Assembly: GCF_014705615.1 (NCBI RefSeq)
Contig: NZ_JACXJA010000031.1
Coordinates: forward strand, 53,205-117,204
From: Paenibacillus oceani
GTDB lineage: Bacteria > Bacillota > Bacilli > Paenibacillales > NBRC-103111
Direction of reading: 5' to 3'
DNA length: 64,000 nt
The position numbers and the translations under genes are program-made. Under the pieces are notes generated by a model, which worked only from the letters and a program-made list of their open reading frames with translations, made no database searches and was not told the DNA's origin. Each line of letters starts with the position of its first letter. Within the stretch, counting starts at the first letter, position 1. Of the stretch, positions 3,302 to 21,954 are shown in pieces.

Positions 3302-3304
3302 TTA

Positions 3305-6876: not shown

Positions 6877-6906
6877 GAAATTCATGAGAGTGATTTATTA
6901 ATTTCG

Positions 6907-6944: not shown

Positions 6945-6973
6945 GTTGAATACTATGATAAGGAGAAAATCCA

Positions 6974-7237
6974 ATGAATAGGATGATTGAGATGGAACGA
7001 AAAGTTACGAAATTTGGTAATAGTCTAGGCATAACTATGACTGATGCCCTTAAACAAATTGGATTAGAACAAGGAGATACAGTTAGTATCGATGTTAATC
7101 AAGCCACTGGAGAGATCATAATTAAGAAATCAACGAAAGTCGCTTTGCCCGAGGGAATCAGCGAGGACTTCATGGATACCCTTACAGATGTAATTGAAAA
7201 ATACGATCAAACATTGCAAGGTCTTAAAGATAGATGA
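6974..7237 (+). CDS. AbrB/MazE-type antitoxin
   Basis: An 87-residue protein with a SpoVT-AbrB swapped-hairpin DNA-binding domain in the first 50 residues (RKVTKFGNSLGITMTDALKQIGL, then a beta-rich QGDTVSIDV stretch) and an acidic C-terminal tail of the kind that wraps a toxin. The start at 6974 has AAGGAG nine bases upstream. Its stop overlaps the start of the Doc-type toxin gene by four bases (ATGA), the usual arrangement of a toxin-antitoxin operon. It most likely neutralises the toxin and represses the promoter through the adjacent palindrome. Confidence 0.88.
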   Translation: MNRMIEMERKVTKFGNSLGITMTDALKQIGLEQGDTVSIDVNQATGEIIIKKSTKVALPEGISEDFMDTLTDVIEKYDQTLQGLKDR

Positions 7238-7641: not shown

Positions 7642-7738
7642 TAAATCAATAGCCTCTCGGAATTAGTCTGGGGTTGAGGAGCAGGTTCGCCGAAAATGTT
7701 CGTAATGGAACTGGAAACTGTGGTAAATGAAAGCCAGT

Positions 7739-9376
7739 TTCAAAAATGGGCAGACTTCGCCAATTTCGCAAACGTGGTTTTCAAAAATTCAGACTGCTGA
7801 AGGGCACACCGTGGATTTCAGTTTGTCCCATTCGTCCTTCTGGCTGACGTACCAAGCGTCCACGTGTTGGCAGATCATAATGCCGTAAATGCGCATGTAC
7901 CACACCAGAGTGGAGCGATGCCGACCGGATTCCAGCTTGTAATCTACTTTTTCCCGCTTGTTGGAGCGTTCAATGGATGTGCGGCGCTTGTAAATCAGCT
8001 TCAACTTTTCCGAATCGCGCGGCGTTTTTGGAAACAACCGTGGATCATCGCTGGTTTTGGTGTAGTAGGTGCGCCCGAATTTGGCAGTTGAACAGCTACA
8101 GTCGGGAGAGCATCTCCACTTCCGACGATGAAGCTTGCGATCCGTGCCGTTCGGTTTCATTTCCTTTCCCTTCGGGCAAATGGGAATCCCCTTAGGGGAA
8201 ATTTGAATATCGCTCGCGGTTTTGCTCGCGCTGTTCTTCTTGGAACGAATATTTAAATCAATAAAGGGCTCCATGCCTTGGTGTTCCAAGAGAAGATAGA
8301 TCGATTCCGCATCATGAGCGGCATCGAGCAACATCTTATCCACCGTGCCCAAAGTGAAACGTTGCTTGAATTCAATCGTGCTCATGACCAGGCTGACAGC
8401 ATCGTGCCGGGAAGCCGGCTGCAGTCTGGGATACAAGGGCAAATCGTACTTGCTGTCCGCCGCTGAGATCATGTACAGGTGGTACCCGTTGAAGTACTTT
8501 TCTCTGGCGCTGTCCCAGCCCGAGTTGCAATCGGGTTGGGAGTAAATACGAGGATGGTTGCATTCGGCTATACCGAGGGCACGACAATCGCAAGTGGATT
8601 TGCTCCGGGGATAGGCAGCGGTGATGATCGGTGTGCCATCACCGGCCGCACTAAGCGCCGAAAGATCCCCGAGCAAACCTAAATTCGCGGATACGGAAAG
8701 AATCTGGGAATTGGAAGAAGTCGAACAGCCGGTCGGCAGGCTGCGCGGTTTTCTTGTCGGCGTGGCGAATCATCCACTTCACCAGACGCTGAACCCTGCC
8801 GGGCGTGGTGGTAGGGGCCTTCTCTCCTTTCTTCTTGCCTTTCTTGGCTTTTCTCTTGCGCCGCTGTGACTGGTGGCATGAGGTTCTTGTCCACAGCAGG
8901 CCAAAGGCGGCTGAAGAAGTCGTAGAACGTTCCGACGCCGGGAAGATCGTCTAAGCGGAAGCCGCTCAGAATGGCATAAATCGGTGTGCGTTGCATCTCA
9001 TTGATCCATTCGGTTAGTCCCATACCCGGGTTAGTCATGAGGAGAATCAGGTAGGAACGCAGTAGGGATGCCGGATCCCGGGGTTTAGGTCCTCGATCCG
9101 AGTATTCGCCCGCAAGCAAGGTTGTAAGGGCGGAAAGATCCGACATCCACAGTTTAGCCGCGAGTGGCCAATCCTTGTTGATGAGAACAACGCCGGGACC
9201 GAAGGAGTCGCGAAGGTGTTGGAGAACAAAAGCTTGGTAGTCCGAATGTGGAACAAGAACAGGTTTCAAAAAGCAACACTCCAATCGCGAGTAGCAAGGG
9301 TCATACCCTTCACGCGATTTTGGAGAATTTTAGGATTTGTCAAGTGTTTTTTTTGAGGAATCCGCCACATTTTGAA
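7739..9376 (-). mobile_element. Decayed insertion sequence (DDE transposase type)
   Basis: The transposase pseudogene is bracketed by two imperfect inverted ends: about 7739-7758 (starting TTCAAAAATGGGCAGACTTC) and 9357-9376 (reverse complement TTCAAAATGTGGCGGATTCC), 14 of 20 matching. Exact boundaries and target duplications are not certain. Because the transposase is frameshifted the copy is probably immobile unless helped in trans. Confidence 0.5.
7789..9284 (-). pseudogene. Frameshifted DDE transposase
   Basis: The N-terminal part (codons from 9284) reads well to about 8860 (through LDDLPGVGTFYDFFSRLW and LMPPVTAAQEKSQ), after which coding similarity moves to a second frame (KRKAKKGKKKGEKAP, then LVKWMIRHADKKTAQPADRLFDFF) to about 8715, and then to a third frame (ILSVSANLGLLGDLSALSAAGDGTPI) running to the stop at 7789. 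The last part contains the SAAGDGTPI strand and DCNSGWDSAREKYFNGYHLY, typical of IS4/IS1182-like DDE enzymes. Two frameshifts therefore break the gene. C-terminal Cys-x-Pro-Asp-Cys residues suggest the family's zinc site. Confidence 0.7.
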
Positions 9377-9407
9377 TATATTTTTTTCAGTTCAAGCTGT
9401 GGCTGAA

Positions 9408-9435
9408 ATAAAAAAACCTCCTACGAAAGTGGAGG
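9408..9435 (-). terminator. Rho-independent terminator (minus strand)
   Basis: On the minus strand CCTCC-ACTTTCGTA-GGAGG is followed by a run of seven T. No clear gene lies directly upstream (9436-9730), so it may be left over from a lost gene or guard the insertion sequence from incoming transcription. Confidence 0.6.
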
Positions 9436-9730
9436 AAGCAAACAGTCAGGGGTATAGGAAAACCCTTGCCCTGTATGGCTCGGCGAATGCCGAGAGGCTA
9501 TATCATGCAAAAGAGGACCTTACAAAGTCGCTTTTCTAATGGTATTGGTGGAGGAGAGGAGATTATTCGACAAACTCTTGCTACCGAAACCCATTCGACG
9601 ACGCAGACCGCAGCGGATGTTTTCGATTGCATGCTTCTGCGCTTCGCTCTGGCCTGAGCGCTCCGCCCCCCTCCTCCCAGTGTCCTCCTTCGAACCGGGT
9701 TCTGGCTCCTCAGCCGCCTTTTGTATAAAT
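9436..9730. other. No gene recognised
   Basis: About 300 bases between a terminator and a hairpin repeat. The small open frames here have no ribosome sites or recognisable products; I see nothing else in it. Confidence 0.35.
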
Positions 9731-9808
9731 TAAAAGACACCTCTCGGGTGTCCTTTTAGTCTGTATGGAGGCAACGCGTGGACTAGTAATTCCACCATTC
9801 GTCGTGCC
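9731..9808. repeat. Composite hairpin module, copy 1
   Basis: A terminator-like hairpin GACACC-tctc-GGGTGTC flanked by AAAA and TTTT (9731-9757), then TATGGAGGC (9764-9772), then a second hairpin GTGGA...TCCAC (about 9777-9794). The same arrangement, with changed stem sequences but the same TATGGAGGC link, recurs at 14731-14815. On the minus strand it lies at the end of the esterase-like gene, so the first hairpin can act as its terminator. Confidence 0.5.
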
Positions 9809-9871
9809 ACCGAACGTGCTATCGAACGAGCCCAGAACCGAGTAGTTTTTTCTAACGGCAACAGGGATTGC

Positions 9872-10637
9872 TTAATTTCGATCGTATTTCATATTCGGAC
9901 CCGGATATATGAATCTCATCGCATGAGGGAAATACCGGTTGAAGAAACGATGATCGTGTACCCCCTCGGGGTCCGTCTCTAGTACGAGATGATCGGCTCC
10001 GCCGGGAACCTTATCTTTTAAAATAACGTAGACCTTCTTCGTATGGGAAACCATATACTGCTGCAAGTTGGCCCTCCCTACGCCCTCCTGCTCGCCGACA
10101 TACAGGTATAAGCGTATTTCATCTTGAGCAAAAGAGTTGTTCTCCACAAACTCCACGATGTTCTCAAACCAAAGTGATGCGGACATTAAAGCGAAACGAC
10201 CGAAATGTTCCGGCTTTCGAAAAGCCGCATAAAGAGAAATCAGCGCCCCCCAAGGAGCCCCCTGTAATGCCCGTCTGGGATGCGTCGTCCGCAATCCGAT
10301 ACCGTTCCCTGACAAAAGGCTTCACTTTCTCCGTCACGAAGCTTAAATAAGCGTCGCCCTCGCCGCCAAAGTGTTCACCCTTCATTAAAGGCGCCGCCTC
10401 CCAAGGCGTATATTCACAAGTACGTTCGACAGGTTCGATGCCGACAAAAATAACTTCTTGCGTCACGCCCCGGGCAAAATCCGCCTCCAGCTCTTCCATC
10501 GAGTCCGCAAACAAATAGCTGCCGTCTTGGACGAACACGGCCGGAAACAACGCCGAAGCATCATCAGAATAAGTTGGCGGTGTATAGACGTGGATATTCC
10601 TATTCTCAAACTGCCAAGTTTCATGGTTCCCCTGCAT
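9872..10637 (-). pseudogene. Siderophore-esterase-like alpha/beta hydrolase, frameshifted
   Basis: Two overlapping frames together encode one Fes/YbbA-type esterase. From the ATG at 10637 (ribosome site AGGAGAT) the frame runs through FPAVFVQDGSYLF and GITGGSLGG, the nucleophile elbow; it then leaves the frame, while the next frame continues with ALISLYAAFRKPEHFGRFALMSAS and ends at 9872. The shift is at a run of six C (plus strand 10246-10251), one base too long. These enzymes hydrolyse ferric-siderophore trilactones or peptides in the cytoplasm to release iron. A Fur-type box lies 180 bases upstream. The shift may be real decay, phase variation or a sequencing error. Confidence 0.75.
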
Positions 10638-10817
10638 GCTTTTATCTCCTCTTATGCTTTTTCTTAATAAAGATCACAATTAACGCCGATCGGCAAAAAG
10701 TTCAAGATGCTGACCCGTGGCTTTGTCAAAGGCTAATCCAGGAACGCTGCATGCCAACAGAGTCAGTATTTAGGGAACACAGCGTTGCCACGCCCCAGTC
10801 AAAAATGCAATTAATAT

Positions 10818-10832
10818 TGATATTCATTATCA
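10818..10832. promoter_or_regulatory. Fur box
   Basis: TGATATTCATTATCA matches the 7-1-7 Fur consensus TGATAAT-N-ATTATCA at all but one position. It lies upstream of the esterase-like gene on the minus strand; no plus-strand gene follows closely. It supports iron control of that gene, although the distance (about 180 bases to the start codon) implies a long leader or a lost gene between. Confidence 0.7.
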
Positions 10833-11012
10833 TTAAATGATGATAGCATAGAGCTTTCTCTCTGTATATATTCAATGAGCATGAGCACAAGATAAGCGGA
10901 CTCTATGTAGGTAGTATGAGAAGAGCGGGGTAGTCATCCCCTTACTAGAATTCGACCATCACAACATTAATCAACAGCCTTCCTATGTGGGCAAAGCAAA
11001 TGCGACGTAACA

Positions 11013-11059
11013 GAAAAAGGAGCCAAAATCCTACTTCAAGGGGATGGCTCCTTCTTTTT
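11013..11059 (-). terminator. Terminator after the small unknown genes
   Basis: AAGGAGCCA pairs with TGGCTCCTT across about 19 bases, with T runs on the minus strand, 50 bases after the stop at 11109. It may work in both directions. Confidence 0.65.
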
Positions 11060-11108
11060 CATGTTCGCGGACAGCTTTTAGAGGCGGCAATATATCGCTC
11101 TGAGTTTA

Positions 11109-11375
11109 TCACATATTCGGAAAAGCCTTTATGAACTCTAAATCGCGATCAAATGTCCTATGTAATTCAGACCTGTCATACTGATCCAAGTACGAAATCA
11201 TAGTCTCTAACGCTGCGATCCGCATCATAGTAGAGATATCACCAAAAGATTCGATATCAATCGATAAGCGCCTTTTCTTCTCCAATTCAATCATTCTTAC
11301 AATAACTTCTCTAAGCCCCCGTAACGATTTCTCATTCCTAAACATAAACGATCTTTCAAGATCGACATGCTTCAA
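11109..11375 (-). CDS. Small protein of unknown function (88 aa)
   Basis: I do not recognise this protein. It is helix-rich and charged (RNEKSLRGLREVIVRMIELEKKR, then an MMRIAALETMISYLDQYDR segment), soluble, with no membrane segment. It starts 24 bases after the stop of the 78-residue frame upstream and is followed by a terminator, so the two are probably co-transcribed. Lying in the accessory block, it may be part of a small-protein cassette such as an immunity or toxin-antitoxin pair, but the sequence does not show this. Confidence 0.5.
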   Translation of the reverse strand: MKHVDLERSFMFRNEKSLRGLREVIVRMIELEKKRRLSIDIESFGDISTMMRIAALETMISYLDQYDRSELHRTFDRDLEFIKAFPNM

Positions 11376-11399
11376 CTCATCCTTGTATTCATCAAGAGT

Positions 11400-11618
11400 T
11401 TAATTCCTCATATCTGCCGCAAAGTCCGCTCTTCTTTGATCGGGCCCCAAACGGAATTTGGTCCTCCAAGCTACAAATGTTTCTTTGGGCACTCCTAACT
11501 CCGATGAGCCGTTCCACTGGTCCATATGACGTTCTACAATAAGCTCATGCATGATATCTTTTAATGACCGCCCGTACCTTTCCTCAACCTCTTGTTGATA
11601 TTCCCTATTTGTTTTCAT
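11400..11618 (-). CDS. Small protein of unknown function (72 aa)
   Basis: Starting at the ATG at 11618, which has AGGAAGG five bases upstream (an earlier ATG at 11636 lacks one), the frame gives a 72-residue charged protein beginning MKTNREYQQEVEERYGRSL. A central segment (MHELIVERHMDQWNGSSELGVPKETFVAWRTKF, seen as residues about 23-55) has the spacing of a helix-turn-helix with the turn at SSELGVPKETF, so it may bind DNA. Probably co-transcribed with the 88-residue gene downstream. No family assigned. Confidence 0.5.
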   Translation of the reverse strand: MKTNREYQQEVEERYGRSLKDIMHELIVERHMDQWNGSSELGVPKETFVAWRTKFRLGPDQRRADFAADMRN

Positions 11619-11643
11619 GAATTCCTTCCTCAGCATTTTTCAC

Positions 11644-11998
11644 TCAAATAGCATTTTCAATGTGAATGTTCACATACTTATTTCTTTTCTTCCCTTCCAG
11701 AGCCGCCCAAACAAAACGGATCTCGTTCCCGGCCTCATCTGTGGACCATAGGGCGTTTGGGTCGGCCACAATTGCTCTAAGCCCAACTTTATCTGAATAA
11801 TCATCCAAGATAGCATCTACAGCACACCCTATGCCCGATTATTATTTTATCACCTCGCCATTAGTGGCAAGAAGTACATTGCGAAGCCCTTCAAATAAAT
11901 TCACGATCTCCTCCCTACTTACAGCACCATTATAGATTAATTCATTACTGGCTGTACTTATCTTAATAGACAAGATTTCATCCCTGTCAGTGCTTTTT
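11644..11998 (-). pseudogene. Remnant small open frames upstream of the two small genes
   Basis: One continuous minus-strand frame holds two protein-like stretches split by TAATAA at 11839-11844. The first (before the stops) contains NELIYNGAVSREEIVNLFEGL; the second contains DDYSDKVGLRAIVADPNALW and ends KKRNKYVNIHIENAI at the stop 11644. Neither has an ATG with a ribosome site; a TTG near 11965 could start the first. Codon use looks protein-like, so these are either tiny genes with weak starts or fragments of decayed genes. They precede the 78- and 88-residue genes in the same direction. Confidence 0.35.
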
Positions 11999-12191
11999 CG
12001 ACGCTAACGGCATATTTGCGTAGAAAAAATAAACAGAGGTATTTTAGACCAGACCGATGATTATATAGGTCTAACACTTTATGTTCTTTGAACAGAAATA
12101 GTTAGTAGAACAAATCAAGTATTTCTTCGGTAAACTATTCCAAATTGGTAGCCTTTATGCGAATATATGAGGAGTATAACTACACAAGAAA

Positions 12192-13133
12192 ATGAGGTAT
12201 CTACTAGTGGTATTAAGCAGTGAAGAGACAAAAAGGCTAAGGACAATCACACTTATTGCTTTATTTTCAGACGATGATCTGTTAGAAACTTTGGTCTTAA
12301 AAGGCGGCAATGCTTTAGAAATTGGTTATGGTTTCAACTCACGAGCATCCATGGATCTCGATTTTTCCATGTCTCAGGATTTTGAAGACATAGGCCTAAC
12401 TGATCTGGAACAAGTTAAAAACAGACTTGAAAAAGTTCTATCAAACACATTCATTGAATACGGATATCAAGTTTTTGAGGTGCGCATCAAAACTAAACCA
12501 AAAAGACTAATCCCAGAAACCCAAGAATTTTGGGCTGGTTATGAAGTCAACTTTAAGATTATTGAACCAGAAAAATTTGAGGCCAATAAAGACAACTTGG
12601 TTTGGTTATCTGCTAAAGCAATAGCTACAAGCGAAATGAAAAAGAATATAACAATTGACTTGGGCAGATTCGAATATACTGGCAGCAAACAATTTATTGA
12701 TAACATTGAGGGATTTGAAGGGTACCTTATCCCTATTTATACTCCCACGTTAATTGTATTAGAAAAATTACGCGCTATTTGCCAACAGATGGAGGATTAT
12801 TTAGTTCGTATAGGTAAAGACCCCAAATTCGGAAAACCAAGACCTAGGGATTTTTATGATATTTATACCATATTGGAAAGCCCAAAAGTCGAGGTGAATT
12901 TTAATGACCCAGAGACTCTGGTCCATCTAACAGAATGTTTCAAGGCTAAACGAGTGCCTATTAATTTGCTTTCTAGAGTTTGGGAAACAAGAAGCTTTCA
13001 TAAACTTGATGAACCTAGATTAAAGGAAACTATTCAGATCGAAGAGAGCTATCAAGGCTTCGATTTCTATTTTGACTATGTATTGGAACTTCTAAAGCAA
13101 AATAATCTTCTTTCCATGGAAGAAACAGCATAA
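12192..13133 (+). CDS. AbiEii/AbiGii-type nucleotidyltransferase toxin
   Basis: A 313-residue protein of the AbiEii (DUF1814, MenA-like) toxin family. The nucleotidyltransferase core appears early: LKGGNALEIGY (about residues 37-47), then the R-x-S-x-D-x-D region RASMDLDFSM (about 52-61) with the metal-binding Asp pair, and further C-terminal family residues (LEKLRAICQQMEDY and GKPRPRDFYDIYTIL). Family members add nucleotides to tRNA acceptor ends and stop growth on phage infection. The ATG at 12192 has only a distant GAGGAG; the GTG at 12207 is an alternative start. The stop abuts an IS1182-like remnant; the matching antitoxin-like gene lies on the other side, in opposite orientation. Confidence 0.85.
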   Translation: MRYLLVVLSSEETKRLRTITLIALFSDDDLLETLVLKGGNALEIGYGFNSRASMDLDFSMSQDFEDIGLTDLEQVKNRLEKVLSNTFIEYGYQVFEVRIKTKPKRLIPETQEFWAGYEVNFKIIEPEKFEANKDNLVWLSAKAIATSEMKKNITIDLGRFEYTGSKQFIDNIEGFEGYLIPIYTPTLIVLEKLRAICQQMEDYLVRIGKDPKFGKPRPRDFYDIYTILESPKVEVNFNDPETLVHLTECFKAKRVPINLLSRVWETRSFHKLDEPRLKETIQIEESYQGFDFYFDYVLELLKQNNLLSMEETA

Positions 13134-13137
13134 AAAA

Positions 13138-13477
13138 GGGGCTGTCCAATAAGTCCCTAAAATAAAAAAGTTGGAGGGACCCCATAGAGTGTCCGCTCCA
13201 ACTTTTTTTGTGGAACTGCTTGTGCAGGAAAGTAGCGAGGCGGATGCCTGCTACTTTCAGAAGATTGTGGGCCAAAGCCACAATCCCAAACTCGACGTAA
13301 ACCTTTTCCAAACCCCGCAAGGAAAAACGTCGGAACGACCGATTGCCCTTGATGTGACCAAACACGCTCCCCACCTCCACTTTACGCCGAGCATAGATCG
13401 CGGATTTTTCGTCATCCTCAAGGGCTGTTTTGGCTTTCGCCTTTAAGTCAGCTATTACTGACTTTCTGGACAGCCTT
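13138..13477 (-). mobile_element. IS1182-like remnant, internally deleted
   Basis: About 340 bases bounded by inverted ends GGCTGTCCAATAAGTC (from 13140) and GGCTGTCCAGAAAGTC (reverse complement, ending at 13475). Inside, the minus strand encodes only the C-terminal part of an IS1182 transposase (EVGSVFGHIKGNRSF, then RRFSLRGLEKVYVEF and GIVALAHNLLK). The N-terminal catalytic part is missing, so this is a non-autonomous derivative. It lies exactly between the stop codons of the convergent AbiEii- and AbiEi-type genes. Confidence 0.8.
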
Positions 13478-13480
13478 CTT

Positions 13481-14362
13481 TTAAATGGAAAAATTTTTGG
13501 GGTAATATAACCGCCAGCGTTTAGAATACTCGCGATCGGGAATGTTATAGGTCAAATAAAAATCGTTAAACATTGGAAAAGACTCCATAATTTTTAACGC
13601 TGTTTCGCTAAAGCCTGCACATTCCATATAGAATCCAATGGCCTGATGATACGGATATACATATTTCAAGTTCTTCAGATACATTCTCAACTTATTCGCT
13701 GAGATTTTGCCTTTGGCGCGTTCATAAATACTTAAAACTTCATATACACCGCCACTGTAATCCGGTCGGACAGCAATATCAATTAATGTTCTTTCCAAAT
13801 CAGTAACAGCTAACCCGTTAATTTTTTTGACACCTAAATTGTCCGTATATCCACCATTTATAACGTAAATACGCTGCCCTTCGTAATCGAAGAAATTGTT
13901 TGTTTTACGCATGGGTTTAGAAAAAGCATTATCAATATTTTCTTGGATCAGCCCCGTGCTCAATGAAGTTCTCCTTCCTTTATCAGATTGCTCTTTATTA
14001 ATATAAATTGATTTAACATTTTCGTTAGTTAAATCGTGAAAATAAACAGCAGAATAATGGCTTAGATAAACTTTAGGATAAAGAGATAACGCAAGCTCTG
14101 TAGGGGTTACTTTCTGATTTCTAAAAACATATCGATAGTTATCAGCTATATAAACTTCTTTTAAAATTTTCTTTTGATTTACAAGAAACTCTAGAAACTC
14201 AGATGGAGTAGTTGTTTTAGGAAGTCTCCATTCTTTCTCATATGTCATTAGAACGCCATTTATTTCCGCAAAATTCAGAACTTTTTTTCCAGGCTCATTT
14301 AATGCGGCAACTATATCTTCTTGATATAATTCCATGATTTGATAACGGTTTAAACGGCCCAT
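13481..14362 (-). CDS. AbiEi-type antitoxin / transcriptional repressor
   Basis: A 293-residue protein of the AbiEi family (type IV-like toxin-antitoxin partner of AbiEii). The N-terminal winged-helix part (about residues 1-90) is followed by the family core: YPKVYLSHYSAVYFHDL (about 120-136), INGLAVTDLERTLIDIAV (about 183-200), then GGVYEVLSIYERAKGKIS. AbiEi proteins bind inverted repeats in their own promoter. Two large palindromes sharing one core lie at and upstream of this gene's promoter, matching that role. The start at 14362 has AAGGAG eight bases before it. Unusually, it faces the toxin gene instead of preceding it in one operon. Confidence 0.82.
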   Translation of the reverse strand: MGRLNRYQIMELYQEDIVAALNEPGKKVLNFAEINGVLMTYEKEWRLPKTTTPSEFLEFLVNQKKILKEVYIADNYRYVFRNQKVTPTELALSLYPKVYLSHYSAVYFHDLTNENVKSIYINKEQSDKGRRTSLSTGLIQENIDNAFSKPMRKTNNFFDYEGQRIYVINGGYTDNLGVKKINGLAVTDLERTLIDIAVRPDYSGGVYEVLSIYERAKGKISANKLRMYLKNLKYVYPYHQAIGFYMECAGFSETALKIMESFPMFNDFYLTYNIPDREYSKRWRLYYPKNFSI

Positions 14363-14391
14363 AAGAGGACTCCTTTTTCAAAATGAAAGAA

Positions 14392-14419
14392 TACAATATG
14401 GTGTATACACCATATTGTA
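14392..14419. promoter_or_regulatory. Operator O1 of the AbiEi-type gene
   Basis: A perfect 28-bp palindrome with half-site TACAATATGGTGTA. It includes the -10 box (TACAAT, minus strand 14419-14414) and covers the start point. Its core GGTGTATACACC is shared with a second palindrome 85 bases upstream. Confidence 0.85.
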
Positions 14420-14442
14420 CCGGAATGTTTGTCGAAAGTCAA
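14414..14442 (-). promoter_or_regulatory. Promoter of the AbiEi-type gene
   Basis: Minus strand TTGACT (14442-14437), 17-base spacer, TACAAT (14419-14414). The -10 box is inside operator O1, so binding there should block transcription directly. Confidence 0.8.
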
Positions 14443-14478
14443 CACCTAAAGGGGTTTTAATCAAAAAAACAACCGAAT

Positions 14479-14502
14479 AGATGGGGTGTATACACCCCAT
14501 CT
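14479..14502. promoter_or_regulatory. Operator O2 of the AbiEi-type gene
   Basis: A perfect 24-bp palindrome with half-site AGATGGGGTGTA, upstream of the promoter. Centre-to-centre distance to O1 is 85 bp, about eight helical turns, so proteins on both sites could meet on the same face of DNA. A further half-site-like TACACCAT follows at 14503-14510. Confidence 0.8.
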
Positions 14503-14591
14503 TACACCATTTATTTTTCAAAGTCAAATCCTCTCCCACTGCGTTGTACATATAAAATCCCCATTAAACTTGCTGCCGCTGTCCCCTTTTT

Positions 14592-14726
14592 CCCGTCTCC
14601 TGATCGAATTCGTGCAGATAGATGTTGGCTAGTAGCGGCGGACACCCTTGCCCTTGGCTAACAGTTCCTACTGCCAAGCCTGTAGCGGACTTTCACCGCC
14701 AAGTTAATCGGTCATGCCGAGCGCAC
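14592..14726 (-). mobile_element. Group II intron remnant (class C-like)
   Basis: On the minus strand the sequence opens GTGCGCTCGGCATG at 14726, the usual 5' end of bacterial group II introns, and continues with the domain I pattern GGTGAAAGTCC, GGCAGTAGGAACTGTTAGCC and GCAAGGGTGTCCG to about 14640. It then joins directly to a short piece of the intron reverse transcriptase, PLLANIYLHEFDQE (14638-14597). The rest of the ribozyme and protein is missing, so the intron is dead. Its 5' end lies immediately after a terminator hairpin and T-run, the target preferred by class C introns. Confidence 0.75.
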
Positions 14727-14730
14727 AAAA

Positions 14731-14763
14731 AAAGCACCCTTAAGGGCCCTTAAGGGGTGCTTT
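14731..14763 (-). terminator. Terminator of the DUF262-ATPase operon
   Basis: Strong stem AAAGCACCCCTTAAGG...CCTTAAGGGTGCTTT with seven T on the minus strand; it lies about 70 bases after the ATPase stop at 14835. The group II intron remnant begins at the first base after the T-run. The A-run on the other side makes it potentially bidirectional. Confidence 0.8.
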
Positions 14764-14770
14764 CGTTTGG

Positions 14771-14815
14771 TATGGAGGCGAGATGCGGATTGCTAAATCC
14801 ACAATTCGCCATAGC
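14771..14815. repeat. Composite hairpin module, copy 2
   Basis: TATGGAGGC followed by a hairpin GGATT-gcta-AATCC inside GGCGA...TTCGCC. It aligns without gaps to 9764-9808 at 31 of 45 positions and, as there, is preceded by a terminator hairpin. The bases ATGGAGGCGAG (14772-14782) also equal the 3' end of ssrA plus one flanking base (17632-17642). Confidence 0.5.
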
Positions 14816-14834
14816 ATATTGTTGATGAACAAAA

Positions 14835-16274
14835 TTAATTAATATTTAGGTAACTTAACAAATTATCAAAGCTATTTTTTGCCGATGCAGAATTACTATC
14901 ACAACTATGCCATGTTTCAAACAATAAAAAGACTAACTGCTCATAAGTAATTCCAAGTTTTCTATGAAATTCCACTAACCAATCATGATGATTTAATCCA
15001 TCTATCTCCGATAAAACCATATGTATCATATCGAGGCTTCTATTTGATATTTCAGCAAGATATTCCGGTTTGGCATATGCCGAATTCCGAAGTTCCTCCT
15101 CAGGGGATTTAACCCCTGGTAAAAAAATGTATGGCCAATTGAACGTTTCATTTACACGTTGTGATTGGTCAGCATCAAACACTCCAATTATTTTTAACCA
15201 TCCTTCAAATGTGGGAAAGTCATTTAATATACCTTTAATCTTGCTCTCGGAATTAATATCTCTAATCTCTAATTGTGAAACAAGTTGAGGGGCATAACGA
15301 GATAACCAGACTTTAGTAAACTCCCGCGCCGCCCTATCTTCAACAAATAATATCCCTAACTTTCTGATAGGGATACCTAAGCTATTCAAATAGGATTGAT
15401 CTTGTGGAACTATAACCCTAACATTATTTCTTAATCTTGAGACCAATCTAACATGCTTTGGAGGAATCCTACTTAGTATATTGGGAGAATGAGTTGATAA
15501 AATAAACCATAGTCCCTTTTCCTCACTAAACTTTGCAAATACGTTTAAAAGAGCTTCCTGTGCATGCGGAGAAAGAAAAGTCTCCGGCTCTTCAATTAAC
15601 AGTACTGAATTATTGTTTACCCTTTGTAGCTGCCAAAGGATAAACAATACTGAAATCTCGCCAGCCCCCATTAGTTCTGAACCATACTCAACTCCATCAC
15701 AATTTACCTTAAAATATGGAACAACCTTATCGACTTCTAGTTCCAGTTCATATGTCATAATTGAATTATATGTCTTTCCTATTATGTATGAAGTAAGATT
15801 AATTTCTTCGTAAGATGATAGTCTAGGCTCATGTTGATCCAATAATTCCTCTATGTTACGCATATCTTGAAATAAACTGACCATTTCATTACCGTATGTT
15901 GAACTATCAATCCAAGCAGAGCTAACTTCGGTCCCCTCTTGAGTTACTTCTATTTTATCTCCAATGACATCAATTCCACGGGAGAAAGATTCATTATTTA
16001 TTTGTAAATCCCCTAAAATCGAGGAATTTTGAATTTTCAGTAAGTGAATATTAGAATTTTCAATAAAGTTTGGCTGCAACATTCCAAGTATCGCGGATAA
16101 AAATGTCGTTTTTCCTGCTCCATTTATTCCACATATTGCAGTTATTCCACCGTTAAAGTTTATATTCCCAGAACCAAGACCAGGGATATTTTCATATTTT
16201 ATTGAATTAATTTTATTGGGATAGTTTCTATTGTATGTCCTTCGCCAATGATCATTAATTTTTGCATTTCTCAT
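14835..16274 (-). CDS. OLD-like ATPase with TOPRIM-type C-terminal domain
   Basis: A 479-residue AAA/ABC-type ATPase. Walker A GINGAGKT is at residues 49-56, an ABC-signature-like MGAGEIS near 205, Walker B VLLIEEPE near 226-233, and a switch His in STHSPN near 262. The C-terminal half contains LFVEDRAAREF (acidic residue of a TOPRIM fold) and GVFDADQS (D-x-D), so an OLD-family nuclease is likely. It is translationally coupled to the DUF262 gene by a four-base overlap. OLD-type proteins act in phage defence (for example Gabija GajA and PARIS); partner and mechanism here are inferred. A strong terminator follows. AT-rich relative to the core genes. Confidence 0.8.
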   Translation of the reverse strand: MRNAKINDHWRRTYNRNYPNKINSIKYENIPGLGSGNINFNGGITAICGINGAGKTTFLSAILGMLQPNFIENSNIHLLKIQNSSILGDLQINNESFSRGIDVIGDKIEVTQEGTEVSSAWIDSSTYGNEMVSLFQDMRNIEELLDQHEPRLSSYEEINLTSYIIGKTYNSIMTYELELEVDKVVPYFKVNCDGVEYGSELMGAGEISVLFILWQLQRVNNNSVLLIEEPETFLSPHAQEALLNVFAKFSEEKGLWFILSTHSPNILSRIPPKHVRLVSRLRNNVRVIVPQDQSYLNSLGIPIRKLGILFVEDRAAREFTKVWLSRYAPQLVSQLEIRDINSESKIKGILNDFPTFEGWLKIIGVFDADQSQRVNETFNWPYIFLPGVKSPEEELRNSAYAKPEYLAEISNRSLDMIHMVLSEIDGLNHHDWLVEFHRKLGITYEQLVFLLFETWHSCDSNSASAKNSFDNLLSYLNIN

Positions 16275-17482
16275 ATGAATTTACCCCATATGCCAAAGTT
16301 AGTCACTTCATCGATAAGATCATTTAGATCTTTTCTTGTAGACCGAGTTTCCACATTCTTGATTAAATCCCTCAAAGTATCCTCTCTGTGGGAATTCAAA
16401 ACATTTATCGATATCCCTTTTGATACTAAATACTTATAAAAGAAAATCCATAAAATTAGATCCCTTGTTACAATAGAGCTGACATCCGCCACTCTCGAAC
16501 TAGCTCTATCATTGAATATCTGCAATAAATGCTCCTCATATTGAGCTAATTCCTGATAGTTGCTACTAAATAAGTTAAATAGAGGTTGTTTATTAACTTG
16601 TCTAATGTTTTCGAAATAAGAAATATAGTCGCCTAGTATTTCTATATTACTAAATATAGCTTCCATAGATTCCATCTCTGCGATAAAGCACAACCATGAA
16701 TATAAAGTTGCCTTATTGAATCTTATTGAAGGATCGAAATACAGGCAGGCTTTGCCAAGTGCCTTTATTGATTCCTGCGCACGTAACATAGCACTATCTT
16801 CAAACCTATCTTGTGATCTGTATTTATTAGTTATATCGTTGGCTTTTATTTTTTCATATAAAGTACCAATTTCTAGGGTGTAACACAGTTTTGCAATAAT
16901 ATCATCATAAGCCATTCTTGAATTCGAAAACTTTAATACTTCTTCAGTTAGGCCATATTTATCAAAACTATCAACAAGCTCCTTAATTTGTTGCCTTGCA
17001 GGACCAAAAAAGGCATTTCTTTGTTCAGCTGAAGTTAGGTTTGTAGGCTGATTTAATCTAAAAAATAATTCTCCAGGCTCCTCTGGTCTATAATCGGTAA
17101 TCTTAAACAGTCGGATAGTAAATTGGTCAAATCTTCTACGCCAAACCTCTGGTAATTGTAAATACTTGTACCCATGTATCTCTTGGATATTTCTATCTAA
17201 TGGTTCAATAAAGCCATCTATAGTAAACTTCCCTTCAACAAAGTCTCTAATAGCCACTAACCTTTGTTGACCATCAAGTACCTCCTGCCGTCTTGTTTCA
17301 AATACTTCAACTACATGAATAGGAGGAACATGCCAATCACGTAGGATGCTATCAATTAATCTTTTCTTCTTTATATCGCTCCATACCTCACCCCTCTGAA
17401 AATCTGGCTGAAGATCGATATCTCCATTTTTTATTCTTTGTACTATAGTATAAATATCCGGGTCAGACGGAATTAACCTCAT
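16271..17482 (-). CDS. DUF262 (ParB/GmrS-like) domain protein
   Basis: A 403-residue protein. DUF262 motifs are clear: DLQPDFQRGEVW (residues 23-34), a following LIDSILRDWHVPPI, and DGQQRL (70-75), which in the GmrSD family binds or hydrolyses nucleotides. No HNH (DUF1524) nuclease motif is seen in the C-terminal half, which ends in a helical region (about 320-380, with RVADVSSIVTRDLILWIF). It is the first gene of a two-gene operon with an OLD-like ATPase. The start follows GGAGGGG with eight bases. Likely a sensor or effector in phage defence; the C-terminal function is unknown. Confidence 0.82.
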   Translation of the reverse strand: MRLIPSDPDIYTIVQRIKNGDIDLQPDFQRGEVWSDIKKKRLIDSILRDWHVPPIHVVEVFETRRQEVLDGQQRLVAIRDFVEGKFTIDGFIEPLDRNIQEIHGYKYLQLPEVWRRRFDQFTIRLFKITDYRPEEPGELFFRLNQPTNLTSAEQRNAFFGPARQQIKELVDSFDKYGLTEEVLKFSNSRMAYDDIIAKLCYTLEIGTLYEKIKANDITNKYRSQDRFEDSAMLRAQESIKALGKACLYFDPSIRFNKATLYSWLCFIAEMESMEAIFSNIEILGDYISYFENIRQVNKQPLFNLFSSNYQELAQYEEHLLQIFNDRASSRVADVSSIVTRDLILWIFFYKYLVSKGISINVLNSHREDTLRDLIKNVETRSTRKDLNDLIDEVTNFGIWGKFI

Positions 17483-17598
17483 TAAAGATTCCCCTCCACT
17501 AACAGATACACTATCGAGTACTTGCTACAATACATGAAAAATTATACAACAACTGGTACTCATGATCTAGTAGATGATGTAAATTAAAAATATAGCAA

Positions 17599-17626
17599 AA
17601 ATCCACAACCATCAGGTTGTGGATTT
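17599..17626 (-). terminator. ssrA terminator
   Basis: AAATCCACAACC-ATCA-GGTTGTGGATTT, a 12-bp perfect stem followed on the minus strand by a T-rich stretch, six bases after the tmRNA 3' end. Confidence 0.85.
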
Positions 17627-17632
17627 GGCTAA

Positions 17633-17994
17633 TGGAGGCGAGGGGAGTCGAACCCCTGTCCGAAGATAACGCCACACCAGCTTCTACGGGTGTAGTGACA
17701 GATTTGATGTCACCCTAGAGTCGCCCCGTCACCGGCTACTCTTCAGGTCAGCCTGATTGTCTTCTTCAGCTAGCCCCAGGCGGAGACTAGACAGCGTATC
17801 CCACTAAGGTTGAGCCCCTATCCCGGCACATGGGCGATGCAGGGTAGAAGCCGCATCACAGGTTATTAAGCTGCGAAAGCGAGTTTTGGTTGTTGTTTGC
17901 CAGTTAAATTGGCGTTCGCGTTGTTGAAGTGGACGCAGCCCCACTACCCGCTACTCATGCTCGAACTATCCCCGTCGAATCCAAAAACGCCCCC
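17633..17994 (-). ncRNA. ssrA: Transfer-messenger RNA (tmRNA)
   Basis: The minus strand starts GGGGGCG at 17994, followed by the conserved GGATTCGACGGGGATAG, and ends with the T-arm GGGGTTCGACTCCCC and CGCCTCC plus discriminator A at 17633; the two ends pair as a seven-base acceptor stem with one G-U. The CCA tail is not encoded (TTA follows). The tag frame (17901-17869) reads GKQQPKLAFAA followed by two TAA stops. tmRNA with SmpB frees ribosomes stalled on broken mRNAs and marks the products for proteolysis. smpB and rnr lie directly upstream, as in Bacillus. Confidence 0.95.
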
Positions 17995-18205
17995 GTGATC
18001 GGAAGTCTCGTCTGGAACGAGGTGCTTCGCAAGTTCGGCTTGCGGAGCCGAAAACCGACAGCGCATCGTATCGCTGTATACACAGTATATCACATTTGGC
18101 TGCTTCCGACACCGCTTCTTGATGGAAACGAAGGTTCACTCTGACAACGATCCCATGAAAAAAACCATGGCGATCTTACCGGCGAATCCCAACGCACCTG
18201 TCTGC

Positions 18206-18691
18206 CTAGCGGGCAATCTTCTGCTTCTCACGCAACGCGCGCTGGATATCGCGCTGAGCATCCCGCTTCGCGTCGCTTTCGCGCTTGTCGAACTGCTTCT
18301 TCCCTTTGCCGACGCCGATCAACAACTTGGCATAGCCGTTACGCACGTAGATCTTGAGCGGTACGATCGTGTAACCCTGCTGCTTCGCCAAGCCTAGCAG
18401 CTTGTGAATCTGTACCTTCTTCAACAACAGCTTCCTCGCTCGGGTGGGATCGGACGGATTGTGGCGGTTCCCTTGCTCAAACGGGCTGATATGCATATTG
18501 TTCACGAACGCTTCGCCGTTACGGATCGTACAGAACGCGTCGGATATGTTGGCCCGGCCGCCTCGCAGCGACTTGATCTCGGTACCGGTCAGTACAAGTC
18601 CGGCTTCATACGTATCCTCGATAAAGTAATCGTAGGACGCCTTCTTGTTCTGAGCCAGCTGCTTGCCATCGTTTTTCTTGGTCAATTCCAT
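18206..18691 (-). CDS. smpB: SsrA-binding protein SmpB
   Basis: A 161-residue SmpB. The N-terminal core contains the family stretch [20 protein letters not shown] and [18 protein letters not shown], and the C-terminal tail is basic ([16 protein letters not shown], then REKQKIAR), which becomes helical in the ribosomal A site. It binds tmRNA and presents it to stalled ribosomes. It lies between rnr (120 bases upstream) and ssrA (about 210 bases downstream), the conserved trans-translation cluster. Length is normal. Confidence 0.97.
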
Positions 18692-18811
18692 CCCCTCCTT
18701 CCGAGTAAGGAACGGACGAACCTTGCGGTCCGTCCGATACCGTTCGTACTACGCTAGGAATTCATTGTATCAACTTCCCTGCGCAAAATCAATGAGGGGC
18801 TACCGCTATAA

Positions 18812-21391
18812 TCATTTTTTCCCGCGCTTTTTGCCGCCTGCCAAAGCGCCGCCTTTCACACCGCCGCCCGGCTTGCGCGACGCGCCAAAGCCGCCTCCGC
18901 GCTTACCGCCGCTTCCGCTGCCACCGCCGCGCGCGCTGCCTCCGGTGCCGGTGCGCCCGCGTCCGCCCCGGCTGCCTCCGCCTGCTGCTGCGCCGCGCTT
19001 GCCTCCCGGCCGCACATTGGTCCACTCGCCGCCGTCGCCGGTCTCGCTCGCCCGGCCGCTTCCGGCCGCTCCCGCGCCTGCGCCACCTGCTCCCGCACCG
19101 CCGCCAGCCCGCGCGCCGCGATCGCCACGCTTGCCTCCGCCGCCGCGGCTAAAGCCCCACATGTCGACGCCGCCCCGTCCGCGTTCGCGGTCCTTGCCTT
19201 CGTCGCCGCGCTTGCCCCGTTGTCCGCGGTTCCCGTCGACGAAATTCACCTTTTGCCCGCGCGGCTGCGCATCTACCATTTCAAAATCGATGTTGTGCTC
19301 CTCCAGGTTGACCCGGGCTACGCGCACCTTCACTTCGTCGCCGATCCGGTAAATCTTCGACGTCCGCTCGCCGATCAGCGCATGCTGCAGCTCATGATAA
19401 TGATAATAATCGTCGGACAGATCGCTTAGCCGGATCAGCCCTTCGACCGTATTTTGCAGCTCTACGAAAATACCGAAGTTGGTCACGCTGCTGATGATCC
19501 CCTCGAACTCTTCGCCGACCTTGTCCAGCATATATTCGGCTTTTTTCAGAGCCTCGGTGTCCCGCTCCGCATCCGCCGCCAGCCGTTCCCGCTCCGACGA
19601 CTGCTTCGCAATATCGTCCATCCGTCCGCCCAAATACTCATGACGCAGCTCGCTCAGCGAACCGTTCTCCAGCACCTCGCGGATCACCCGGTGGATGATC
19701 AAGTCCGGATAACGCCGGATCGGCGACGTAAAGTGCGAGTAATACTCGGCGGCCAAACCGAAGTGGCCGAGGCTGTTCGCATCGTACTTGGCCTGCTTCA
19801 TCGAGCGCAGCATCACGGTGCTGATAATCGTCTCTTCCTTCGTCCCGCGAATTTCCTCCAGCAGCGTCTGCAGCGCTCTAGGATGAACCGTATTCCCTTT
19901 CCCGCGCACGACGTAGCCGAAATTCGTTATGAACTCCATGAAATGCTGCAGCTTGTCGCCGTCCGGATTTTCGTGAATCCGGTACAGGAAAGGCACCTTC
20001 AGCCAGTGGAAATGTTCGGCTACCGTCTCATTCGCGGCCAGCATGAACTCTTCGATAATCTGCTCGGCGATCGAACGGTCCCGTTTGACGATATCCGTCG
20101 GCTTGCCGTTTTCGTCCACGAGTATTTTCGACTCCTGGAAATCGAAATCGATCGCTCCGCGTTTCATCCGTTTCCGGCGAAGCTTCATCGCCAGCTCTTC
20201 CATCAGCTTGAAGAAATCCACGAGATCGGCATACCGATTGGTCACCTCTTCGTCTTCACCGGCCAATATTTTGCGCACATTCGTATAGGTCATGCGCTCC
20301 GTCGTCTTAATCACGCTCGTGAACACATCGTGGCGCACCACATTGGCGTCTGCGTCGAACTCCATCTCGCACGACATCGTCAGCCGGTCCACCTTCGGGT
20401 TCAAGCTGCAGATTCCGTTCGACAGCCGGTGCGGAAGCATCGGAATGACACGGTCGACCAAATAAACGCTGCAGCCGCGATTGTACGCTTCCCGGTCGAG
20501 CGGGGAGTTCTCGCGCACGTAGTAACTGACGTCGGCAATATGAACGCCCAGCAAATAGTTGCCGTTCGGCAGCAGCTCTACGTTGACCGCGTCGTCGAGA
20601 TCCTTGGCGTCTTCGCCGTCGATCGTCACAATCGTCCGATCCCGCAAATCCCGGCGTCCGCGCAGGTCGTCCTCGCTGATCGAATCCGGCACGCCTTCCG
20701 CCTCGGCGGTCACTTCCTCCGGGAATGCTTCCGGCAGCTGGTATTTGCGGATAATGGACAAAATGTCCACGCCCGGATCGTCCTTATGCCCGAGAATTTC
20801 CACAACCCGGCCTTCCGCCGCTGCACGCCCTTGCGGGTACGTGACGATATCGACGACGACCTTCTGACCGGTTACCGCGCCTTCGAAATAATCTTTCGGG
20901 ATAAAAATATCTTTCGTAATCCGTTTGTCGTCCGGAATAACGAACGCATAACTTTCGAAGCTCTGGAACGTCCCGACGATTTGCTTGATCGCGCGTGTAA
21001 CGATCCGGACAACTTCCCCCTCCAGCCTGCCTCCGGCCGCACTTTTGGAGGTAATGCGGGCCAGCACGATATCCCCGTTCATCGCCCCGTTCATGTCGTT
21101 CGCATGAATATAAATATCCGGATGTTCTTTGTCGTCCGGCAGCAAAAACCCGAACCCTTTGGCGTGAGCCTGAAGCTTGCCCTTCAGCAAATTCATCCGC
21201 TCGGGAACCCCGTAGCGCTCCGTCCGGGTGCGAATAATCTCTCCGGCTTCCTCCAACTGATTCAGCAGTTTCAGAAACTGCTTAAACGCATCGGCATCTG
21301 CAATCTCAAAATGCTTCTCCAGCTCCTGATACGTCATCGGCTTGTACGCTTTCTCGCGCATAAAATCAAGCAATAGCTCGGCTGTCATCAT
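18812..21391 (-). CDS. rnr: Ribonuclease R with long Gly/Arg tail
   Basis: An 859-residue RNase R: an N-terminal winged-helix RNA-binding domain (about 1-75), two cold-shock domains, the RNB catalytic domain with the Asp-rich site [14 protein letters not shown] (about 275), and an S1 domain near 640-720 ([20 protein letters not shown]). It degrades structured RNA 3' to 5' and removes tmRNA-released messages. After the S1 domain there is a tail of about 130 residues made almost entirely of Gly, Arg, Lys, Ala and Ser, with RGG/GGR runs; B. subtilis RNase R is shorter by about 80 residues. The start ATG has AGGTGA upstream. Confidence 0.97.
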
Positions 21392-21670
21392 AAAATCACC
21401 TGTTTCCTGTCATTAATTACTCTGTATGTTAGTATTGACGTTTTCGACCCGCTCATCCCCCTAATCATGACGTTCTCCGATAAAGAATGTTCTCTTTGCT
21501 TTTACACGATAACCAAGCACTTTAAACATTCGATACAGCTACGGCCAGTTTCCGAAGGAGGGACTGCCTGCGCAGCCGCACCATCTTGGTGGTAGAGACA
21601 GCCTATTCCCGGCAACCCGTGCCGCCCGCAGCCTTCGTCCGCTTGTAAGGGCAACCACGATTTGCCAACT
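21392..21670. other. Intergenic region upstream of rnr, no gene recognised
   Basis: About 280 bases between the secG terminator and rnr. The B. subtilis locus has an esterase gene here; none is visible. A 71-codon frame has no ribosome site. The promoter of rnr is presumably within it. Confidence 0.4.
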
Positions 21671-21703
21671 AAAAAACAGCAGGAGCTTAGCACCCCTGCT
21701 GCG
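21671..21703 (-). terminator. secG terminator
   Basis: On the minus strand CAGCAGGG...CCTGCTG is followed by six T, 15 bases after the secG stop. Confidence 0.85.
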
Positions 21704-21717
21704 TTCGATGTCGACAT

Positions 21718-21954
21718 TTAAGCTTTTACCACGTATGCTACGATAAGGGACAACAGGAAAAACGATACGGCAAATCCGACCGTTACCCGGGACAGAAGCA
21801 ATTCCAATCCGCGTGCTTTCTGTTTGCCGAAGAGGTGTTCCGCACCGCCCGAGATGGCACCGGATAATCCCGCACTCTTCCCTTTTTGCAAAAGAACGAT
21901 AGCGATCAGGCCAATCGATGCGATGACGAGCAAAATTTTCAGAAAAATTTCCAC
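21718..21954 (-). CDS. secG: Preprotein translocase subunit SecG
   Basis: A 78-residue membrane protein with two membrane segments (residues 3-22 and 56-76) linked by the conserved glycine-rich loop LQKGKSAGLSGAISGGAEHLFG. It is the small accessory subunit of the SecYEG channel. The start is the GTG at 21954 with GGAGGTG six bases upstream; the longer open frame reaching 22038 would add residues not found in SecG. It is followed by its own terminator. Confidence 0.96.
   Translation of the reverse strand: MEIFLKILLVIASIGLIAIVLLQKGKSAGLSGAISGGAEHLFGKQKARGLELLLSRVTVGFAVSFFLLSLIVAYVVKA

What the first reader, a model, noticed from the sequence alone, without database searches (positions are those of the whole stretch)
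14835..17482. Two-gene DUF262 + OLD-like ATPase/TOPRIM module next to ssrA
A DUF262 protein without an HNH nuclease domain is translationally coupled (ATGA overlap) to an ATPase that carries Walker A/B, a switch His and TOPRIM-like acidic motifs (LFVEDRAA, GVFDADQ). OLD-type ATPase/TOPRIM proteins and DUF262 proteins each occur in defence systems (Gabija, PARIS, GmrSD), but I do not know this exact pair as a named system. It is AT-rich, sits at the tmRNA 3' end, a classical integration site, and is surrounded by toxin-antitoxin genes and mobile-element debris. If DUF262 is a sensor, the ATPase/TOPRIM could be the nuclease effector.
Basis: partly seen in the sequence, partly recalled or inferred. 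Interest (0 to 1): 0.8.

Follow-up and report, generated by a model that had tools for sequence, protein, structure and literature searches.

The report
Two-gene DUF262–TOPRIM phage-defence module
Beside a bacterium's tmRNA gene lie two overlapping genes that recur side by side in distantly related bacteria and in prophage-like contigs; they likely form an anti-phage defence in which a sensor-like protein would switch on its predicted nucleic-acid-cutting partner, a pairing for which no name was found in the searches made.

Summary
A 403-aa DUF262 protein (16271-17482, -) overlaps by ATGA a 479-aa OLD-type ABC ATPase (14835-16274, -) whose C-terminus carries TOPRIM motifs, in AT-rich DNA 150 bp past ssrA. 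The two genes are a conserved unit: adjacent in 8 of 8 loci read, ATGA overlap in 6 of 8. In a 398-genome class sample both families occur in the same 3 genomes, adjacent in each. Distances co-vary over 21 pairs (r = 0.92, 0 of 9999 permutations; 13 pairs rest on equal contig length). The ATPase-TOPRIM is a diverged relative of HEC-04/IbfA, a single-gene abortive-infection protein; the DUF262 is a diverged relative of Menshen NsnA. It fits neither: the 5 solo relatives checked have no DUF262 nearby, and no NsnC was found. Most likely a GmrS-like NTPase switch controls an OLD-ABC-TOPRIM nuclease in trans. The nuclease keeps OLD's metal-A triad (E312, D367, D369) but not its metal-B acid. Function is untested. 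New variant of a known kind; papers that might already list the pair were not held.

The parts
16271..17482 (-). DUF262 (GmrS/ParB-CTPase-fold) protein, 403 aa, no DUF1524/HNH found; first gene of the unit
   Evidence: QR, DGQQR and FxxxN motifs at Q29-R30, D70-R74, F140/N144 conserved in 50 of 50 rows (Q72 in 49); AF2 model pLDDT 88 matches BrxU and SspE
14835..16274 (-). OLD-type ABC ATPase (about residues 1-303) with C-terminal TOPRIM-like nuclease domain (about 304-479), 479 aa; second gene
   Evidence: AF2 pLDDT 91; top PDB matches OLD nuclease and GajA; motif columns
16271..16274 (-). ATGA stop/start overlap (translational coupling, inferred)
   Evidence: sequence at junction; same overlap in 6 of 8 loci, TAATG in L002, TAA|ATG in L031
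16230..16268 (-). codons for the N-terminal helix of the ATPase (residues 3-15); the motif R-x-A-x3-D-x-W spans residues 2-10; proposed DUF262 docking site (inferred)
   Evidence: strict motif in 20 of 21 paired homologs and 0 of 5 solo relatives; a sixth, OLD-like relative, L077, also lacks it by eye; helix 3-15 in model
14835..15365 (-). codons for the TOPRIM part (residues 304-479 and stop) with E312, D313, D367, D369, E392 and the HHDW motif 429-432
14737..14756 (-). terminator-like hairpin about 80 nt past the ATPase stop; would end the two-gene transcript (pattern match only)
   Evidence: 3 found against 1.7 expected, so weak
17633..17994 (-). ssrA (tmRNA) upstream of the unit; context, not part of the system
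   Evidence: alignment with 4 congeners stops at 17624-17633, of which 3 are informative

Best explanation
The locus encodes a conserved two-gene unit, a DUF262 protein and an OLD-type ABC ATPase with a predicted C-terminal TOPRIM nuclease domain, that likely works as an anti-phage defence in which the DUF262 protein would sense infection and switch on the nuclease in trans. Shown by calls: the two genes are adjacent and co-directional in all 8 loci read, overlap by ATGA in 6, occur in the same three genomes of a class sample, and co-vary. Shown by conservation: the NTP-pocket motifs of GmrS-type DUF262 are intact, and the ATPase and TOPRIM metal-A residues are intact. Inferred: (1) the pair forms a complex, perhaps through the N-terminal R-x-A-x3-D-x-W helix of the ATPase, which the solo relatives lack; (2) the DUF262 module, which in GmrSD, BrxU and SspE is linked to an HNH nuclease that it controls by NTP binding and hydrolysis, here has no nuclease and instead controls a partner; (3) recognition of phage DNA (perhaps modified DNA) or of an infection signal changes the NTP state and lets the ABC ATPase dimer engage; (4) the TOPRIM domain then cleaves nucleic acid, giving restriction or abortive infection. 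The target, DNA or tRNA, is open; DNA is favoured because the nearest solved folds are the DNA nucleases OLD and GajA, but the OLD metal-B acid is replaced, so the chemistry may differ.
Against: No experiment on this pair. TOPRIM is not called by Pfam; a profile of 8 C-termini finds no OLD or TOPRIM chain among PDB sequences up to E 10; the profile-profile probability is only 25.7% over 65 columns; whole-chain TM-scores to OLD and GajA are 0.33-0.35 and the structural second look covered residues 15-303 only. The OLD metal-B acid at E+4 is A/G/S in 37 of 37, so nuclease activity could be altered or lost. DUF262 homologs (2435 at E up to 1e-3) far outnumber the 45 ATPase relatives found, own included (43 cover at least 85% of the query; those searches scored only 7998 candidates), so DUF262 may also have other partners. 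Solo ATPase-TOPRIM relatives exist, so DUF262 may be an accessory. The strict N-terminal motif is missing in 10 of 22 tree rows of unknown context. The family is rare, own genome included: 3 of 398 class genomes, 1 of 398 phylum genomes.
Confidence: 0.6

Rival explanations
1. DUF262 is not the sensor but the restraint: the ATPase-TOPRIM protein senses infection by itself (as solo HEC-04/IbfA would) and is a toxin that the DUF262 protein holds inactive until phage disturbs the NTP pool or the complex.
For: Solo ATPase-TOPRIM relatives exist without DUF262 nearby (L075, L076, L084, L148, L149) and a solo member is antiviral, so sensing need not require DUF262. Tight coupling, co-variation and first-gene position would also suit an antitoxin.
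Against: DUF262 keeps its NTP-pocket motifs in 50 of 50 rows, and in the characterised systems summarised in a review DUF262 promotes rather than inhibits the nuclease (PMC10952713 passages).
Confidence: 0.2
2. A divergent Menshen: DUF262 (NsnA) plus an NsnB-like ATPase, with the NsnC effector replaced by, or corresponding to, a fused TOPRIM.
For: DUF262 best PADLOC hit is NsnA (E 7.4e-37) and the ATPase hits NsnB (E 8.8e-19); Menshen-type loci have the same DUF262-ATPase gene order with overlapping ORFs (L118, L119, L120). [quoted passage not shown]
Against: Scores are 125.5 and 66.4 bits against 386 and 335 for NsnA and NsnB of L118. No NsnC hit for the C-terminal half up to E 10, while the separate NsnC of L118 scores 141 bits and shows no TOPRIM motif by eye. 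The ATPase scores higher to HEC-04 (90.7) than to NsnB, and the C-terminal half hits HEC-04 only.
Confidence: 0.12
3. The pair serves a non-defence role, for example prophage or mobile-element maintenance, regulation, or inter-element competition.
For: It is carried by two viral-collection contigs, one Pf-like, and both proteins match PHROGs of unknown function.
Against: Both protein families have tested defence members (passages); phage accessory genes often serve superinfection defence (recalled).
Confidence: 0.08

Closest known systems
HEC-04 / IbfA (PADLOC candidate; single-gene ABC ATPase-TOPRIM abortive infection protein)
   Same: ABC ATPase-TOPRIM architecture; HHxW-type motif, and VED and DGD motifs in most solo relatives; PADLOC 90.7 bits, E 1.9e-26 here
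   Different: The two HEC-04-like solo proteins tested score 207 and 187 bits; 5 of 5 solo genes have no DUF262 of this kind in the fetched flanks and lack the N-terminal R-x-A-x3-D-x-W motif
Menshen (NsnABC)
   Same: DUF262 gene followed by an overlapping ABC ATPase gene
   Different: L118 has a separate 285-aa NsnC (141 bits) and a 383-aa NsnB (335 bits) too short for the TOPRIM tail
GmrSD / BrxU / SspE / GrwAB (Type IV-like DUF262 enzymes)
   Same: DUF262 NTPase module with QR, DGQQR, FxxxN motifs (motifs as given in PMC12137116 passages; columns)
   Different: No DUF1524/HNH nuclease found here; the predicted nuclease is a separate OLD-ABC-TOPRIM protein. A survey of the 20 most common enterobacterial GmrSD clusters names single-gene and two-gmrSD-gene architectures as the two predominant ones (PMC12373910 passages)
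OLD nucleases and Gabija GajA
   Same: ABC ATPase followed by TOPRIM; metal-A E/DxD triad and spacing; top PDB fold matches
   Different: No helicase hit among the four neighbours scanned; OLD metal-B acid at E+4 is A/G/S
Retron type I-B (class 3 OLD) effector and PARIS AriA/AriB
   Same: ATPase-Toprim_I-B profile E 6.3e-19 and AriA E 3.8e-17
   Different: No RT hit among the four neighbours scanned and no other unscanned ORF of more than 120 aa at 11000-17500; TOPRIM is in the same chain, unlike AriA plus AriB; DUF262 as a PARIS part is unknown to me (recalled)

Membership tests
Menshen (NsnABC) | NsnA DUF262 subunit | tested here: inconclusive
   Best hit is NsnA at 125.5 bits, against 386 for the NsnA of L118
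Menshen (NsnABC) | NsnB ATPase | tested here: inconclusive
   66.4 bits to NsnB, below 90.7 to HEC-04; L118 NsnB scores 335; no tree of NsnB was made
Menshen (NsnABC) | NsnC third subunit | tested here: not met
   No NsnC hit for the C-terminal half or for the two AbiE-like neighbours; ORFs beyond these were not scanned with PADLOC
HEC-04 / IbfA | ABC ATPase fused to TOPRIM, profile match | tested here: met
   90.7 bits, two stretches, best 159-405; the paired homolog of L086 aligns 7-484 to 5-486 of the 494-position model; more diverged than the two solo members tested (207, 187 bits)
HEC-04 / IbfA | encoded as a single gene | tested here: not met
   DUF262 partner adjacent in 8 of 8 loci
GmrSD Type IV restriction | DUF262 with QR, DGQQR, FxxxN motifs | tested here: met
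   50 of 50 rows (Q72 in 49 of 50)
GmrSD Type IV restriction | DUF1524/HNH nuclease | tested here: not met
   no such Pfam hit in either protein up to E 1
GmrSD Type IV restriction | cleavage of modified DNA | not testable with these tools
   needs phage and nuclease assays
OLD family nuclease | ABC ATPase domain with Walker A, Walker B, H-loop | tested here: met
   37 of 37 rows; OLD and GajA head the Foldseek list
OLD family nuclease | TOPRIM domain with metal-A E, DxD | tested here: met
   E312, D367 37 of 37, D369 33 of 37; predicted strand order. The domain was not superposed on its own, Pfam does not call it, and a PDB profile search was empty
OLD family nuclease | metal-B acid at E+4 (TsOLD D381, BpOLD E404) | tested here: not met
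   A/G/S in 37 of 37; positions from PMC7049728 passages
Gabija | UvrD-like helicase GajB next door | tested here: not met
   no helicase family in the pair or the four neighbours scanned
Retron type I-B | reverse transcriptase gene and ncRNA | tested here: not met
   no RT family among the proteins scanned and no unscanned ORF above 120 aa at 11000-17500; no Rfam family but tmRNA reached its cut-off in 11000-17700, which need not cover all retron RNAs

The most novel reading that the evidence does not exclude
A distinct class of Type IV-like defence: the GmrS sensor-NTPase has shed its HNH nuclease and works in trans on an OLD-ABC-TOPRIM nuclease, which it grips through a dedicated N-terminal R-x-A-x3-D-x-W helix; that nuclease has rebuilt its metal-B site (D313, E392 and H430 conserved instead of the OLD acid). 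Phages, including Pf-like filamentous ones, carry the module as a weapon against competitors.
Probability: 0.4. Interest if true: 0.7.

Novelty: new variant of a known kind. Interest (0 to 1): 0.55.

Why it matters
DUF262 and OLD-ABC-TOPRIM proteins are much-reused parts of bacterial immunity, but in the characterised cases seen here (review passages) the DUF262 NTPase controls an HNH nuclease domain. A two-gene version, with related solo ATPase-TOPRIM genes that lack the partner, would make one question directly testable: what does adding a DUF262 protein do to an OLD-type nuclease? It also links three systems usually listed apart (GmrSD, Menshen, HEC-04) and points to a candidate docking helix.

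Tried and rejected
Menshen membership: rejected on the missing NsnC and on scores, though a review gives Menshen an OLD nuclease. Gabija, retron I-B: no partner gene among the proteins scanned. att site: no second copy of the ssrA 3' end in the window (one search covers bases 1-30000), so integration at ssrA is suggested by the breakpoint only. PDB by sequence: DUF262 no match up to E 1; C-terminal profile only three unrelated weak hits. The structural second look listed SMC, cohesin, condensin, Rad50 and PtuA for residues 15-303 and left the TOPRIM part barely tested. The viral structure library gave 25 matches at E up to 0.001, mostly ABC ATPases; long alignments (671-710 columns) to giant-virus AAA or ATP-dependent endonuclease proteins have TMq 0.36-0.37. 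DUF262: no match in plasmids at 1e-20; no match of the L086 pair in E. coli genomes or of the L086 DUF262 in the phage records at 1e-20; the plasmid search with P0129 gave DUF262 proteins of 27-32% in the 20 rows shown. Viral scans with the window DUF262, P0107 and P0163 gave no relative, and with A3 three contigs with weak or short matches that were not followed; P0129 and P0114 gave the same two contigs again. Rows left out: A1 used 37 of the 44 relatives; A2 used 50 of the 120 listed of 2435; the four weaker matches of seven (G235, G374, G091, G096) are unpaired and were counted as relatives, not members, as were G713 and G526; G096 was checked with a flank of under 2 kb only. 22 of 48 tree rows have unknown neighbours, and two of the five solo rows are long branches. 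Papers: Li et al. 2025 on Menshen (gkaf357, seen only as a citation) and Krishnan et al. 2020 on ABC ATPases (title recalled) are not held; the Payne et al. 2024 preprint is known only through PMC12111858. Ten paper searches, several with capped lists and over open-licence papers only, and passages of 12 papers showed no description of the pair; no paper was read whole.
Full report
What is there. On the minus strand of an 8.0-Mb genome (window = G000:C25:53205-117204), a 403-aa DUF262 gene (16271-17482) is followed by a 479-aa ATPase gene (14835-16274) with an ATGA overlap. The pair starts 150 bp past the 3' end of ssrA (17633) and lies in DNA of 32-37% GC, against 48-71% in the steps from 17500 to 21749. 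A terminator-like hairpin follows the ATPase at 14756-14737 (weak against shuffles).

Domains. Pfam calls GmrSD_N (DUF262) in the first protein and AAA_21/AAA_15 in the second, and no DUF1524 or other nuclease. PADLOC's best hits are NsnA (125.5 bits) for the first and HEC-04 (90.7 bits) for the second, then ATPase-Toprim_I-B and NsnB. The isolated C-terminal half hits only HEC-04 (17 bits, E 4.2e-4). In 50 DUF262 homologs the QR, DGQQR and FxxxN motifs are kept (Q72 in 49); these are the motifs named for GrwAB and GmrSD (PMC12137116 and PMC10952713, passages). In 37 ATPase homologs Walker A, Walker B, the switch histidine, E312, D313, D367 and H430 are invariant, D369 is D in 33 and N in 4, E392 is E in 34 and D in 3, H429 and W432 are kept in 34 and D431 in 35.

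Is the pair real? In every locus read whose ATPase scores above 430 bits to profile A1, a DUF262 above 420 bits to A2 is the gene directly upstream: window, L002, L031, L078, L079, L085, L086, L137, 8 of 8. The junction is ATGA in 6, TAATG in L002 and TAA|ATG in L031. L085 and L086 come from the viral collection; L085 lies beside HNH, ParB-like and RusA-like phage genes and its DUF262 is 86% identical to one named for Paraburkholderia; 34% of the L086 locus matches Pseudomonas phage 62-2 at 90%, and 195 bp match Primolicivirus Pf1, hence 'Pf-like'. Named cellular members are Bacillota such as Cohnella, Rossellomorea and Paenibacillus. In 398 class genomes the strong ATPases are in G000, G186 and G289 and the DUF262 family is in G000, G186 and G289; if the two draws are the same, as their counts and handles indicate, the chance of that is about 1e-7. 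In 392 order genomes the three strong ATPases (G000, G016, G711) are all paired. As a contrast, 29 other NsnA-like DUF262 genes from 299 class genomes have no such ATPase-TOPRIM in the fetched flanks; five have another ATPase of 37-50 bits. Pairwise distances of the two proteins over 21 pairs correlate at 0.92, with 0 of 9999 permutations as high; eight of these pairs were read directly and 13 were taken from equal contig lengths in the two protein lists. Shared ancestry of the hosts also contributes to this correlation.

Relatives without the partner. Four genomes (G235, G374; G713, G526) and a Burkholderia glumae plasmid hold ATPase-TOPRIM genes of 159-181 bits to A1 with no DUF262 hit in the fetched flanks. 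The two tested match HEC-04 far better (207 and 187 bits), and the five lie apart from the 21 paired rows (100/100, ungrouped rows not counted). They lack the N-terminal motif R-x-A-x3-D-x-W that is strict in 20 of 21 paired rows (P0015 has P for A). Of the 22 tree rows with unknown context, 12 have the strict motif and 10 do not, so the motif is not absolute.

What is known nearby. HEC-04 is described as an ABC ATPase fused to TOPRIM that defends against T4 and T5, not T7 or lambda, and its homolog IbfA lowers phage productivity (PMC12111858 passages). Menshen combines a DUF262 protein with a predicted OLD nuclease according to a review (PMC10952713 passages). In L118 the three Menshen genes score 386 (NsnA), 335 (NsnB) and 141 bits (NsnC, 285 aa); L119, L120 and L123 look alike by eye. 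That NsnC shows no TOPRIM motif by eye, so the review's wording and this locus do not agree, and I could not read the 2025 Menshen paper. AriB of PARIS shows that a defence TOPRIM can be a tRNase (PMC12409363 passages), so the target of this TOPRIM stays open. No family listed by Pfam, NCBIfam, PADLOC or PHROGs and none of the paper listings or passages that I saw names the DUF262 + OLD-ABC-TOPRIM pair; the most relevant papers are not held.

How it most likely works. In GmrSD-type enzymes one system carries the DUF262 switch and an HNH nuclease. Here the switch is intact, that nuclease is absent, and the regular neighbour supplies a predicted ATPase-gated TOPRIM nuclease. The simplest reading is a split, two-protein version: DUF262 detects infection, perhaps modified DNA, and its NTP state releases the partner. 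The main rival is that the ATPase-TOPRIM senses infection as its solo relatives would have to, and DUF262 restrains it. Both predict a complex; they differ in what the second gene does alone.

Context. Alignment with four congeners runs through the smpB-ssrA stretch and stops at 17624-17633; in G002 the contig ends about 30 bases further, so three are informative. In those three no sequence of window bases 1-17600 is found in the 18-20 kb read downstream, and one has recombinase-like ORFs next to ssrA (the recombinase reading is by eye, not a family search). So the module sits at a variable spot, but no att repeat was found, and no integrase was seen among the ORFs listed between 11000 and 17500 (by eye).

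Verdict. A real, conserved two-gene variant built from known parts, unnamed in the sources searched; likely anti-phage; mechanism inferred.

Noticed in passing
12192-13133 (+) and 13481-14362 (-): AbiEii-like (Pfam AbiEii E 8.6e-21) and AbiEi-like (PADLOC AbiEi E 5.4e-18) genes lie tail to tail instead of in the usual AbiEi-AbiEii operon (usual order recalled).
   Followed up: no
14479-14502: A 24-bp perfect palindrome lies upstream of the AbiEi-like start; possibly its operator.
   Followed up: no
14590-14735: About 145 bp matching (87%) a stretch at a group II intron ltrA gene on a Paenibacillus sonchi plasmid, with roughly 95-bp matches in many Gram-positive plasmids; likely a group II intron remnant, though no Rfam hit.
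   Followed up: partly
ssrA 3' end, 17633; L167; G002:C36:74-220: Synteny stops at the ssrA 3' end in the three congeners that could be read; one has recombinase-like ORFs beside it, and another genome (G002) holds a second 147-base match (90%) to the ssrA end.
   Followed up: partly
L118:3002-6416 and 7054-8892: A Menshen operon (all three subunits by PADLOC) next to a 612-aa protein that looks like a GmrSD-type DUF262 with an HNH-like end (the second not family-searched).
   Followed up: no
L121:2869-6837: A different arrangement: ATPase, 187-aa protein with TOPRIM-like IVEGNSD and DQDGD motifs, DUF262, and a further 247-aa gene.
   Followed up: no
7789-9284 (-): Two adjoining frames that look like a broken transposase (by eye, not family-searched).
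   Followed up: no
L086:4998-7612: A Pf-like Pseudomonas prophage contig carries the pair; its DUF262 matches phrog_1583 (517 bits) and its ATPase phrog_3940 (117 bits), both of unknown function.
   Followed up: partly
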